64,000 nt of DNA from assembly GCA_947478725.1 (NCBI GenBank), contig CANJWZ010000007.1, positions 52,678-116,677 on the forward strand, in the 5' to 3' direction. Below are positions 27,500-32,753 of the stretch, piece after piece. The notes below the pieces were generated by a model, which ran no database searches, was not told where the DNA came from, and saw nothing but the letters and a program-made list of their open reading frames with translations. Made by a program: the position numbers and the translations under genes. Position 1 is the first letter of the stretch. Each line of letters begins with the position of its first letter. The stretch comes from Comamonadaceae bacterium. Its GTDB lineage: Bacteria > Pseudomonadota > Gammaproteobacteria > Burkholderiales > Burkholderiaceae_C.

Positions 27500-27500
27500 C

Positions 27501-27624
27501 TCACTTCTTGCCCTTGGACGACGGCATTCCCATCGCTTCACGCTGTTTGTCCAAGCGGTCCTGCTTGCGCTTTTCCATCTTGTCCATTTGCTTGCGCTTG
27601 GTGTAGGCCGAATTGTCAGCCCAT
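27501..27624 (-). pseudogene. Possible frameshifted 40-aa Lys-rich small protein
   Basis: Removing one G from ATGGGCTGAC gives MADNSAYTKRKQMDKMEKRKQDRLDKQREAMGMPSSKGKK*. Confidence 0.5.
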
Positions 27625-27779
27625 CAAAAACACATGCGTGGCTCCCGCGTTCAAGCAATCTGTGGTGGAAATGCCGCATTGCCCTTTGACTGAACGGCAA
27701 CTGTGCCGTCAACCCAAGTCACTACAATGGCGTTAAATCACTGTAACGAAAACTGAAAAGAGACCCACGAGGACAATCC

Positions 27780-28166: not shown

Positions 28167-30164
28167 TTACAGATTTTCAGCCAACTGATCAAGGATGGCA
28201 GGGTTTTCAAGGGTCGACGTGTCCTGCGTGATCGCCTCGCCCTTGGCAATGCCCCTTAACAGGCGGCGCATGATTTTGCCGCTACGGGTTTTAGGCAGGT
28301 TGTCGCCAAAGCGGATGTCTTTCGGCTTGGCAATCGGGCCAATTTGCTTGCCGACCCACTCGCGCAACTCTTTGGCAATCGCTTTGGCCTCGTCGCCGGT
28401 GGGACGAGAGCGCTTGAGCACCACGAAAGCCACAATCGCCTCGCCCGTCAGGTCGTCTGGCCTGCCGACCACGGCGGCCTCCGCCACCAGCGTGCTGTGC
28501 GCCACCAGGGCGGACTCGATTTCCATCGTACCCATGCGGTGACCCGACACGTTCAGCACGTCGTCAATGCGGCCCGTGATGCGGAAGTAACCGTTGTCTT
28601 TGTTACGCACCGCGCCGTCACCTGCCAGGTAAATCGCGCCACCCATTTCTGGGGGGAAGTAACTTTTCTTGAAACGCTCGGGGTCGTTCCAGATGGTACG
28701 AATCATCGACGGCCAGGGGCGCTTGACGACCAGCAAGCCGCCTGCGCCGTTGGGCAAATCATGACCTGTCTCGTCAACAATCGCAGCCATGATGCCAGGC
28801 AGCGGCAGCGTGCAACTGCCTGGCACCAGCGGCGTGGCACCGGGTAGCGGTGTGATCATGTGGCCGCCAGTTTCAGTCTGCCAGAAGGTGTCCACCACCG
28901 GGCAGCGCTCGCCACCCACGTTTTTGTAGTACCACATCCAGGCCTCAGGGTTGATCGGCTCACCGACCGAACCCAGAATGCGCAAGCTGCTTAAATCTGA
29001 CCGGTCAGGATGAACTTTTTCATCGGCTTCAGCAGCCTTGATCAGGGAGCGAATGGCTGTTGGCGCAGTGTAGAAAATCGATACCTTGTGGCGCTCAATC
29101 ATTTGCCAGAAGCGACCCGCATTCGGGAAAGTAGGAATGCCTTCAAAAATGACCTGCGTGGCACCAGCGGCCAGGGGGCCATAGGCCACATAGGTGTGCC
29201 CGGTAATCCAGCCGATGTCTGCGGTGCACCAGAACACATCGGTCGGCTGCAAATCAAAGGTCCAGTCCATCGTCAGCTTGGCCCACAGCAAATAGCCACC
29301 TGTGCTGTGCTGAACCCCTTTGGGTTTGCCGGTGGAGCCTGACGTGTAAAGAATGAACAGCGGATGCTCCGCACCCACAAATTCAGGCACACATTCGGGT
29401 GCAGCTTTGGCGGTGACTTCATGCATCAGGCTGTCGCGCCCGGCGATCATGTTGCAAGCGGTGGCCGTGCGCTGGTACACGATGACGTTCTTGATCGACT
29501 CGCAGCCGCCCATGGCCAGGCCTTCATCCACAATCGCTTTGAGTGGCAGCTCTTTGCCGCCGCGCAGCTGGTAATTGGCGGTGATCACGGCCACCGCACC
29601 GGCGTCCTGAATGCGCTCTTGTAAACTTTTTGCGGAAAAGCCGCCAAACACCACCGAATGCGTGGCGCCAATGCGGGCACAGGCTTGCATGGCCACCACG
29701 CCTTCGACGGTCATCGGCATATAGATGACCACGCGGTCACCTTTTTGAACGCCCATGGCCTTCAGCGCGCTGGCAAACTGGCTGACTTTGGCGTGCAGCT
29801 CCTTGTAGGTGACATTGACGATGGAGCCGTCATCGCCTTCAAAAATGATGGCTTTTTTGTTTTCGGTGGGCGTGCCCAAGTGGCGGTCCAGGCAGTTGTA
29901 GGACGCATTGAGATGACCGTCCGCAAACCAGGTGTAAAAGGGGGCGTTGGACTCGTTCAGCACTTCGGTGAAGGGCTTTTTCCAGCTCAGGTTGTCACGC
30001 GCCAGCTTGGCCCAGAAGCCCTCAAAATCCTTGTCGGCCTCGGCGCACATGGCGTTGTAAGCAGGCATGCCCGAAATACGGGCCGCCTTGACGGCGGCAG
30101 GGCCAGGCGGGAAAACCCGGTTTTCAACCAGCGTAGACTCGATGTTCGAATTGTTCGTGCTCAT
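28167..30164 (-). CDS. acs: Acetyl-CoA synthetase
   Basis: [43 protein letters not shown] and C-terminal [15 protein letters not shown]. Confidence 0.95.
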
Positions 30165-30311
30165 TGTTTGTCTCCTGTTTGTCACAAGTCTGTCTTGAGA
30201 ACCGTGTTACTGTCCCGCATCGCTCTTACGGGTTACTGACTGGCTTGAATCTTACAAAACTTTCCTTTGCTCTCCTCGGCAATCTTTATTTCAGCCTCTA
30301 CAATTTCTCTC

Positions 30312-30914
30312 ATGTCCGAAGAAACACCAAAAAAACACTCTCCCCTGCGGCCTTTGCCAAATTTTATTTTTGCCAGCCGCTGGCTCCAGTTGCCGCTGTA
30401 TCTGGGCCTGATTGCAGCGCAGGCCGTGTATGTGGTTCACTTCTTGGTGGAGCTCAAACACCTGATTGCCGCGGCCTTCGGCAGCCTGCCCGACTTGCAG
30501 GCACTGATCACCAGCATCGGCTACAAAACCCCGGTAGAGATCGTCACATTAAACGAAACTGTCATCATGCTGGTGGTCCTGGCGCTGATTGACGTGGTGA
30601 TGATTTCCAACCTGCTGATCATGGTGATTGTGGGCGGTTACGAAACCTTTGTCAGCCGCATGAACCTGGAAGGCCACCGCGACCAGCCTGAGTGGCTCAG
30701 CCATGTGAACGCCAGCGTGCTCAAGGTCAAGCTCGCCACCGCCATCATCGGTATCAGTTCGATTCATTTGTTGAAGACTTTTATCAACGCCGACAATTAC
30801 ACCGACCGTGTGCTGATTGCGCAAACCGTGATTCACATCGTGTTTTTATTGTCGGCGGTGGCCATCGCCTACACCGATAAAATCATGTCTGGCATTTCAG
30901 CTGAAAAGCATTGA
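30312..30914 (+). CDS. YqhA/UPF0114 family membrane protein
   Basis: NFIFASRWLQLPLYLGLIAAQAVYV, MISNLLIMVIVGGYETFVSR. Confidence 0.88.
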   Translation: MSEETPKKHSPLRPLPNFIFASRWLQLPLYLGLIAAQAVYVVHFLVELKHLIAAAFGSLPDLQALITSIGYKTPVEIVTLNETVIMLVVLALIDVVMISNLLIMVIVGGYETFVSRMNLEGHRDQPEWLSHVNASVLKVKLATAIIGISSIHLLKTFINADNYTDRVLIAQTVIHIVFLLSAVAIAYTDKIMSGISAEKH

Positions 30915-30931
30915 TCGGGCAAATGCATTTT

Positions 30932-31118
30932 CAAGGGGCCCTCTCAAGCGTGTGTCGTTTTTGCAGGCACCACCCAGGCATCAAACTGCTCACCCGTTAC
31001 ATGGCCTGATCCGATCGCCGCAGCGCTCAAGCTGCTGCCTTCTTTGTGCGCCCCACAGTCCGCTGGCGGACACACTGATCGGGCCAAAGGTATCGTGTTC
31101 AGTACGGGTTGGGGTCAT
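30932..31118 (-). pseudogene. fumC: Class II fumarase relic with the gene interior deleted
   Basis: Minus strand encodes MTPTRTEHDTFGPISVSASGLWGAQ (FumC N-terminus) joined out of frame to AHKEGSSLSAAAIGSGHVTGEQFDAWVVPAK (FumC C-terminus). Confidence 0.82.
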
Positions 31119-31190
31119 GGTGCTTACCTGTCAAAATAGCAGGGTTGAATTTTCCTTGCCTAAAGCCCCTCATCCCACGAATCACGCCCC

Positions 31191-32753
31191 ATGACAATCA
31201 CCACCACAACCATTCGTCAAGCCGACCTCATCGAATCCATCGCTGCTGCCCTGCAATACATCAGCTACTACCACCCAGCCGATTACATTGCCCATCTGGC
31301 ACGCGCTTATGAAGCAGAGCAAAGCCCCGCCGCCAAAGACGCGATTGCGCAGATTTTGACCAACAGCAAAATGAGCGCCACTGGCCAGCGGCCCATTTGC
31401 CAGGACACCGGCATCGTCAATGTGTTTTTAAAAATCGGCATGGACGTGCGTTGGGAAGGTTTTACTGGCAGCGTTGACGATGCGGTGAATGAAGGCGTTC
31501 GCCGTGGTTACAACCACCCCGACAACACCCTGCGCGCCTCGGTCGTGGCAGACCCGCAATTCGACCGCAAGAACACCAAAGACAACACGCCCGCCGTGAT
31601 CAACACCGAACTGGTCACAGGCAACACGATTGAAGTCACCGTCGCCGCCAAAGGCGGTGGTAGCGAGAACAAAAGCAAGCTGGCCATGCTGAACCCCGGC
31701 GACAGCATTGTCGATTGGGTGCTGAAAACCGTGCCCACCATGGGCGCAGGCTGGTGCCCACCCGGCATGCTGGGCATCGGTATTGGCGGCACGGCTGAAA
31801 AAGCCATGCTGCTGGCCAAGGAAAGCCTGATGGAAGACCTGGACATGTACCAGCTGCAAGCCAAAGCCAAATCAGGCGCGGCATTGACCAAGGTAGAGGC
31901 CCTGCGCATCGAGCTGTTTGAAAAAGTCAACGCGCTGGGCATAGGCGCGCAAGGCCTGGGCGGGCTGACCACGGTGCTGGACGTCAAAATCAATATGTAC
32001 CCGACCCACGCTGCGGGTAAACCGGTAGCGATGATCCCCAACTGTGCCGCCACCCGCCATGCGCATTTTGTACTTAGCGGCAGCGGCCCGGTGTACCTGA
32101 CGCCGCCGCCGCTGGATACCTGGCCCAACGTGAACTGGACACCCGACTACGTGAAAAGCAAGGCCGTGAACCTGAACACGCTGACCAAGGCCGAGGTGGC
32201 GAGCTGGAAACCCGGCGACACGCTGCTGCTTAGCGGCAAAATGCTGACCGGCCGCGACGCGGCGCACAAACGCATTCAAACCATGCTGGCAGCCGGTGAG
32301 GCACTCCCCGTTGACTTCACCAACCGGGTGATCTACTACGTCGGCCCAGTGGACCCAGTCCGTGACGAAGCCGTTGGCCCGGCAGGCCCGACAACGGCCA
32401 CCCGCATGGACGGTTTTACCGAGATGATGCTGGCCAAAACCGGGTTGATCAGCATGATCGGCAAAGCCGAGCGTGGCCCGGTGGCGATTGAAGCGATCAA
32501 AAAACACCAAAGCGCCTATCTGATGGCCGTTGGCGGCGCGGCCTACCTGGTGTCCAAAGCGATCAAAAACGCCAGAGTCGTCGGTTTTGCCGACCTGGGC
32601 ATGGAAGCTATTTACGAGTTTGACGTGGTCGACATGCCGGTGACGGTGGCAGTTGATTCAGGCGGTACCAGCGCGCACACCACCGGGCCAGCTGAATGGC
32701 AAAAGCGGATTGCCACGGGCGAATTCAAGGGGATTGCAGTCGCAGCGGCTTGA
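31191..32753 (+). CDS. Class I (Fe-S) fumarate hydratase
   Basis: RPICQDTGIVNVFLKIGMDVRW, GIGGTAEKAMLLAKESL, AVDSGGTSAHTTGP. Confidence 0.93.
   Translation: MTITTTTIRQADLIESIAAALQYISYYHPADYIAHLARAYEAEQSPAAKDAIAQILTNSKMSATGQRPICQDTGIVNVFLKIGMDVRWEGFTGSVDDAVNEGVRRGYNHPDNTLRASVVADPQFDRKNTKDNTPAVINTELVTGNTIEVTVAAKGGGSENKSKLAMLNPGDSIVDWVLKTVPTMGAGWCPPGMLGIGIGGTAEKAMLLAKESLMEDLDMYQLQAKAKSGAALTKVEALRIELFEKVNALGIGAQGLGGLTTVLDVKINMYPTHAAGKPVAMIPNCAATRHAHFVLSGSGPVYLTPPPLDTWPNVNWTPDYVKSKAVNLNTLTKAEVASWKPGDTLLLSGKMLTGRDAAHKRIQTMLAAGEALPVDFTNRVIYYVGPVDPVRDEAVGPAGPTTATRMDGFTEMMLAKTGLISMIGKAERGPVAIEAIKKHQSAYLMAVGGAAYLVSKAIKNARVVGFADLGMEAIYEFDVVDMPVTVAVDSGGTSAHTTGPAEWQKRIATGEFKGIAVAAA

What the first reader, a model, noticed from the sequence alone, without database searches (positions are those of the whole stretch)
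30932..31118. fumC relic formed by deletion of almost the whole gene, beside a class I fumarase
The minus strand between yqhA and the class I fumarase starts MTPTRTEHDTFGPISVSASGLWGAQ, which matches the start of class II fumarases. It then continues, one frame off, as AHKEGSSLSAAAIGSGHVTGEQFDAWVVPAK, which matches their C-terminus. The two parts meet at GGCGCACAA, consistent with deletion of over 1 kb through a short homology. This looks like a fossil of one fumarase type being lost beside a retained, non-homologous isofunctional enzyme.
Basis: partly seen in the sequence, partly recalled or inferred. Interest (0 to 1): 0.72.

Follow-up and report, generated by a model that had tools for sequence, protein, structure and literature searches.

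The report
Deletion scar of a fumarase gene
This short stretch is the two stuck-together ends of a deleted fumarase gene (fumC), one of about seven separate losses of that gene in the genus Polaromonas, while the unrelated neighbouring fumarase gene that does the same job is kept.

Summary
On the minus strand, window 31118-31044 encodes the first 25 residues of a class II fumarase (FumC) and 31051-30944 its last 35 residues, one frame off. The pieces share an 8-9 bp overlap (GCGCACAA). The closest intact relative (G103) has a complete 462-codon fumC at exactly this place, between the same yqhA and class I fumarase genes. The window lacks 1214 bp of it. A second assembly (G015) has the same junction, and all six substitutions between the two relics are amino-acid replacements, so nothing is being conserved. 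The host genome (99% complete, genus Polaromonas by contig matching) has no other fumC; its class I fumarase is intact. On an rpoB tree of the genus fumC loss needs 7 changes, with at least four different deletion scars. In the family, class I is in 201 of 201 near-complete genomes, and about a quarter (49) have no fumC. So the relic is an ordinary deletion pseudogene, but a clean fossil of a repeated, one-way loss of the oxygen-stable fumarase. Why class I is the one kept is inferred, not shown.

The parts
31044..31118 (-). fumC relic, N-terminal piece: start codon to Gln25 (MTPTRTEHDTFGPISVSASGLWGAQ)
   Evidence: NCBIfam fumC_II profile 2-22; tblastn to G103 FumC residues 1-32; aligned base by base to G103 and G083 fumC starts
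30944..31051 (-). fumC relic, C-terminal piece (AHKEGSSLSAAAIGSGHVTGEQFDAWVVPAKTTHA and stop), in another frame than the N piece
   Evidence: PF10415 FumaraseC_C E 4.6e-6; tblastn to G103 FumC 428-461
31043..31051 (.). deletion junction: 9 bp that align to both ends of the missing 1214 bp segment (GCGCACAAA on the minus strand)
   Evidence: blastn overlap against G103 2810/4016; site alignments
31191..32750 (+). retained class I (4Fe-4S) fumarase, 520 aa, intact, with the motifs PICQDTG, GAGWCPPG and PNCAATRHAHF
   Evidence: PF05681 E 1.3e-98 and PF05683 E 8.5e-83; translation
30324..30911 (+). yqhA-family gene (UPF0114 / TIGR00645), the flank on the other side of the lost fumC in relatives too
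   Evidence: PF03350 E 5.5e-34, TIGR00645; same neighbour in intact loci
31119..31190 (.). divergent spacer that once held the fumC leader and still holds the conserved CCTGTCAAAATA box (31127-31138)
   Evidence: spacer listing across loci, motif count

Best explanation
The stretch is a dead remnant of a class II fumarase gene. Shown: the ancestor had a divergent pair fumC(-)/fum1(+) between yqhA and the class I gene; a deletion of about 1.2 kb, whose ends share a short direct repeat, joined codon 25 to codon 428 and shifted the frame; the genome kept no other fumC and an intact class I fumarase. Inferred: the join arose by slippage or annealing at the short repeat without long homology; the loss was tolerated because the class I enzyme catalyses the same fumarate/malate step; the remnant now drifts neutrally. 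Also inferred: class I is kept in this family because it can do what FumC cannot (mesaconate hydration) and may be fairly oxygen-tolerant, which makes FumC the expendable partner.
For: Both ends of FumC, right order and strand. Intact 462-codon orthologue at the same place in G103, same flanks acs-yqhA-fumC-fum1-aroC, 94% DNA identity on both sides and 1214 bp missing. Same junction in the separate assembly G015. No fumC elsewhere in G000. No constraint on the remnant: 6 replacement, 0 silent codon differences G000-G015; against G103 11 replacement and 6 silent, while intact G103-G083 over nearly the same codons has 8 and 16. Near-invariant residues are lost in the relic (Pro of VPA to Ser; Arg of SLR to Ser). 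Local divergence of the relic (6/176) is like that of fourfold sites of adjacent yqhA (3/96). Recurrence: fumC absent or broken in separate branches of the rpoB tree, 7 changes; the AU test rejects one clade for G000, G015, G012 and G011 (p 9e-6) and for G000, G015 and G012 (p 0.005); different scars in G011, G003, G098 and clean joins of 21-68 bp in others. Class I in all 49 good genus genomes and in 201/201 family genomes; no fumC-like hit better than 1e-20 in 49 of those 201 (my count). Literature: both classes are functionally interchangeable in a methanotroph whose class I is about 70% identical to the Paraburkholderia enzyme and oxygen-insensitive (PMC10602362); Paraburkholderia class I also hydrates mesaconate, E. 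coli FumC does not (PMC4682846).
Against: The repeat at the junction is short and imperfect in living relatives (GCGC exact, 7 of 9 matching in G103), so the repeat-mediated step is inferred. Between about 30000 and 31300 G103 is unusually far from both relic genomes, so the intact G103 copy may have been brought in by recombination; the loss may then be older than the G103 split. The reason for keeping class I was not tested. Most genomes are metagenome bins.
Confidence: 0.95

Rival explanations
1. The relic is real but the deletion is older than the split from G103, and G103 regained an intact fumC by homologous recombination with a related Polaromonas.
For: G103 differs from G000 and G015 by 16-26 of about 190-200 bases in the windows just before yqhA and by 17-19 of 138 over the relic and spacer, against about 3-4% in most flanking windows, while G000 and G015 are close there.
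Against: G000 and G015 are sisters on rpoB with support 94, so a single loss after the G103 split needs no regain; the high-divergence windows include non-coding and freely drifting DNA.
Confidence: 0.2
2. The remnant has been reused as a small protein (42 or 47 codons) or as a regulatory RNA or leader for the class I gene.
For: Both frames are still open in G000 and G015; the spacer box CCTGTCAAAATA next to it is kept.
Against: All six differences between the two relics are replacements, none silent, in the original frames; it is shared by only two genomes of the genus relatives searched.
Confidence: 0.03
3. Assembly artefact: an intact fumC collapsed at a short repeat.
For: The genome is a draft in 79 contigs.
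Against: The same junction is present in a second, 97%-similar assembly with its own substitutions; assemblers do not normally join at 8-9 bp; the remnant carries replacements at near-invariant positions that an intact gene would hardly tolerate.
Confidence: 0.01

Closest known systems
Class II fumarase FumC (TIGR00979; PF00206/PF10415)
   Same: The two ends match the first and last residues of the family and the gene sits where relatives carry an intact fumC.
   Different: About 400 of 462 codons are gone, including the whole catalytic core and its GSSxMPxKxNP signature; the frame is shifted. It is not a working member.
Bacterial pseudogenes made by deletions between short direct repeats
   Same: One internal deletion, short repeat at the join, drifting remnant, intact orthologue in a sister.
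   Different: Nothing mechanistic; what is unusual is that sister lineages lost the same gene with different scars beside a retained unrelated isozyme.
Class I/class II fumarase redundancy (Methylotuvimicrobium alcaliphilum 20Z, Paraburkholderia xenovorans, Burkholderia cenocepacia)
   Same: Two unrelated fumarases in one genome; class I and II interchangeable in M. alcaliphilum (PMC10602362); in B. cenocepacia fumA falls and fumC rises on iron depletion (PMC7377471).
   Different: There both genes are present; here FumC has been lost and only class I is left.

Membership tests
Class II fumarase (functional FumC) | N-terminal sequence of FumC | tested here: met
   fumC_II profile 2-22, E 0.01; tblastn E 1.6e-7
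Class II fumarase (functional FumC) | C-terminal domain PF10415 | tested here: met
   E 4.6e-6, 33 of 54 positions, 27.4 bits against the family's cut-off of 32.5
Class II fumarase (functional FumC) | Lyase core with the GSSxMPxKxNP signature, one open frame | tested here: not met
   1214 bp including the core missing and frame shifted
Deletion pseudogene | Intact orthologue at the same place in close relatives | tested here: met
   G103, G083 and most of the genus
Deletion pseudogene | No selective constraint on what is left | tested here: met
   6 replacement, 0 silent codon differences between the two relics; near-invariant residues changed; small numbers
Deletion pseudogene | No transcript or product with a function | not testable with these tools
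   No expression data held
Class I fumarase (window 31191-32750) | Fumerase and Fumerase_C domains, three cluster cysteines | tested here: met
   PF05681 and PF05683; motifs PICQDTG, GAGWCPPG, PNCAATRHAHF in the translation; that these cysteines are the cluster ligands is from knowledge of the family

The most novel reading that the evidence does not exclude
In this family the class I fumarase has become the indispensable one and class II is being lost over and over, each time leaving class I as sole fumarase in bacteria presumed aerobic. This would be the opposite of the textbook expectation that the oxygen-labile iron-sulphur enzyme is the dispensable partner, and would be explained by an oxygen-tolerant class I enzyme that also hydrates mesaconate.
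Probability: 0.4. Interest if true: 0.55.

Novelty: new member of a known kind. Interest (0 to 1): 0.42.

Why it matters
Gene loss is usually seen only as absence. Here the sister lineage still has the gene, the scar is readable to the base, and neighbouring lineages show other stages of the same loss (small frameshifting deletions, larger remnants, clean joins, replacement by other genes). That makes the choice between two unrelated enzymes for one TCA-cycle step a natural repeated experiment. The one-way result, class I kept in every good genome and class II lost about seven times in one genus, asks directly whether this class I enzyme is oxygen-tolerant enough to make FumC dispensable.

Tried and rejected
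The two remaining fumC_II hits in G000 were checked and rejected as fumarases: by sequence they are argininosuccinate lyase and adenylosuccinate lyase. A slow-evolving remnant looked possible at first (6/176 against silent-site distances of 0.13-0.18 in most flanking genes), but adjacent yqhA and spacers are equally low, and all changes are replacements, so constraint was rejected. The CCTGTCAAAATA box was tried as a fossil marker of lost fumC: present upstream of class I in 60 of 71 loci with fumC (or the G015 relic) close by and in 9 of 79 without; but apart from the known G011 relic, the box-bearing loci without fumC showed no FumC remnant by eye, so the box is not specific. G078, G010 and others with fumC fragments at contig ends were treated as undecided, not as losses. 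A first tblastn with an acs query taken in a wrong frame was replaced; it did not touch the fumarase results. Literature searches for repeated fumC loss in this group found nothing; the library holds open-access papers only.

Full report
WHAT IS THERE. The minus strand from 31118 reads MTPTRTEHDTFGPISVSASGLWGAQ and then, one frame off, AHKEGSSLSAAAIGSGHVTGEQFDAWVVPAKTTHA followed by a stop at 30944. The second piece matches Pfam FumaraseC_C at E 4.6e-6; NCBIfam fumC_II matches piece one at profile positions 2-22 and piece two at 425-455 of 458. Each match is modest because the pieces are 25 and 35 residues long, but they are the two extreme ends of one family in the right order, on one strand, directly joined.

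THE ANCESTRAL STATE. G103, among the nearest of the 87 genus genomes, has an intact 462-codon fumC between yqhA and the class I fumarase. DNA on both sides aligns to the window at 94-95%, and at this place the alignment breaks once: window 31051 pairs with G103 2810 and window 31043 with G103 4016, so 1214 bp are missing and nine bases align to both edges. 1214 is not a multiple of three, hence the frame change. In G103 the two edges read GGCGCGCAAACACAG and AAAGCGCACCAAGAAGG; the relic reads GGCGCACAAAGAAGG. Exact identity of the living edges is GCGC, with 7 of 9 matching. Most relatives have a lysine codon (AAG or AAA) where G103 has CAA, and a few have GCA for the alanine, so a perfect 8-9 bp repeat in the ancestor is plausible but not shown.

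A SECOND COPY OF THE SCAR. G015, a separate genome about 97% identical here, has the same junction to the base. Six bases differ inside the relic; all six change an amino acid in the original frames and none is silent. Against G103 the relic shows 11 replacement and 6 silent codon differences, while the intact pair G103-G083 shows 8 and 16 over nearly the same codons. The proline of VPA and the arginine of SLR, near-invariant in the intact homologues, are changed. The remnant is therefore drifting. Its divergence between G000 and G015 (6/176) is like that at fourfold sites of adjacent yqhA (3/96), although most other flanking genes have silent distances of 0.13-0.18.

NOTHING ELSE REPLACES IT BUT CLASS I. 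fumC_II finds only two weak hits in the host genome, and their sequences read as argininosuccinate lyase and adenylosuccinate lyase. The class I fumarase next door is complete with both domains.

THE LOSS IS REPEATED. In the genus, class I is found in 86 of 87 genomes and in all 49 that are at least 90% complete and at most 5% contaminated. fumC over the family cut-off is in 69 of 87. At the syntenic place I found: intact fumC in most; a second remnant in G011 (start codon plus about ten N-terminal residues, then the WLA..SGxGELSIP segment, L111 about 1500-1640); a 91 bp frameshifting deletion in G003; an internal deletion of about 250 bp with a stop codon in G098; joins of only 21-68 bp between yqhA and class I in G077, G034, G031, G030, G012, G085 and G007 (the last has a fumC on another contig); and two other genes, by reading a TctC-like binding protein and an FAH-like enzyme, in the place of fumC in G013 and G022. 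On an rpoB tree of 59 genomes the absent state needs 5 changes, and 7 if G003 and G098 are counted as losses. G000/G015, G012 and G011 are separated by the fumC-bearing G103, G083 and G082, and the AU test rejects grouping them (p 9e-6 for all four, p 0.005 for G000, G015, G012). In a family-wide sample of 201 genomes of at least 95% completeness, class I is present in all 201. fumC_II is over its cut-off in 114, and 49 genomes have no hit better than 1e-20 (my count from the table); the rest have lower-scoring fumC-like genes. Named Comamonadaceae records show the same picture: fumC beside or near class I in Variovorax, Acidovorax, Hydrogenophaga and others, and none at that place in several Rhodoferax, Hylemonella and Limnohabitans loci.

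WHY CLASS I STAYS (INFERRED). Class I fumarases of the E. coli type are oxygen-labile, so in aerobes one might expect FumC to be kept. But the class I enzyme of a methanotroph, about 70% identical to the Paraburkholderia xenovorans enzyme, is oxygen-insensitive, interchangeable with FumC in vivo and also active on mesaconate (PMC10602362), and P. xenovorans uses class I for mesaconate, which E. coli FumC cannot hydrate (PMC4682846). Burkholderia cenocepacia raises fumC and lowers fumA on iron depletion (PMC7377471), so FumC may be a spare for iron-poor conditions. If the Polaromonas class I is of the same kind, FumC would be lost wherever iron stress is weak. Not tested here.

CAVEATS. Between about 30000 and 31300 G103 is unusually distant from both relic genomes while those two are close to each other; its intact fumC could have come by recombination, so the date of the loss is uncertain. 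Most genomes are metagenome bins; absences in bins under 90% complete were not relied on without a readable syntenic join, except that G108 (66% complete) is scored absent inside an all-absent clade of the rpoB tree, where it adds no change. The rpoB tree was a quick maximum-likelihood search on one gene.

VERDICT. As a thing it is an ordinary deletion pseudogene. Its interest is as a base-resolved example of a repeated one-way loss between unrelated enzymes for the same reaction.

Noticed in passing
L111 (G011:C123) 2-1435: In G011 the class I fumarase also has an in-frame gap of about 36 residues that removes PNCAATRHAHF, the segment with one of the cluster cysteines, while its fumC is a remnant: this 79%-complete bin may have no working fumarase, or the assembly is wrong.
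   Followed up: partly
window 31127-31138; spacers of L017-L171: A 12 bp box CCTGTCAAAATA is conserved in the fumC/class I divergent spacer across Comamonadaceae (core CTGTCAAAA in 60 of 71 loci with fumC close by, 9 of 79 without); possible operator, promoter part or leader element, identity unknown.
   Followed up: partly
L100 5160-7445 (G013) and L108 1600-3880 (G022): Between yqhA and class I fumarase two genes, by reading a TctC-like periplasmic binding protein and a fumarylacetoacetate-hydrolase-like enzyme, stand where fumC is in relatives.
   Followed up: no
window 30000-31300 against L097 and L095: G000 and G015 are unusually alike and G103 unusually distant over this stretch, which suggests a recombined tract around the fumC place.
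   Followed up: partly
window 27500-27779: The spacer between ilvD and the cytochrome c gene differs at 62 of 280 positions between G000 and G015, far more than neighbouring stretches.
   Followed up: no
L117 and L144: yqhA next to fumC is reduced to short fragments in G071 and G028, so this neighbour also decays in some lineages.
   Followed up: no
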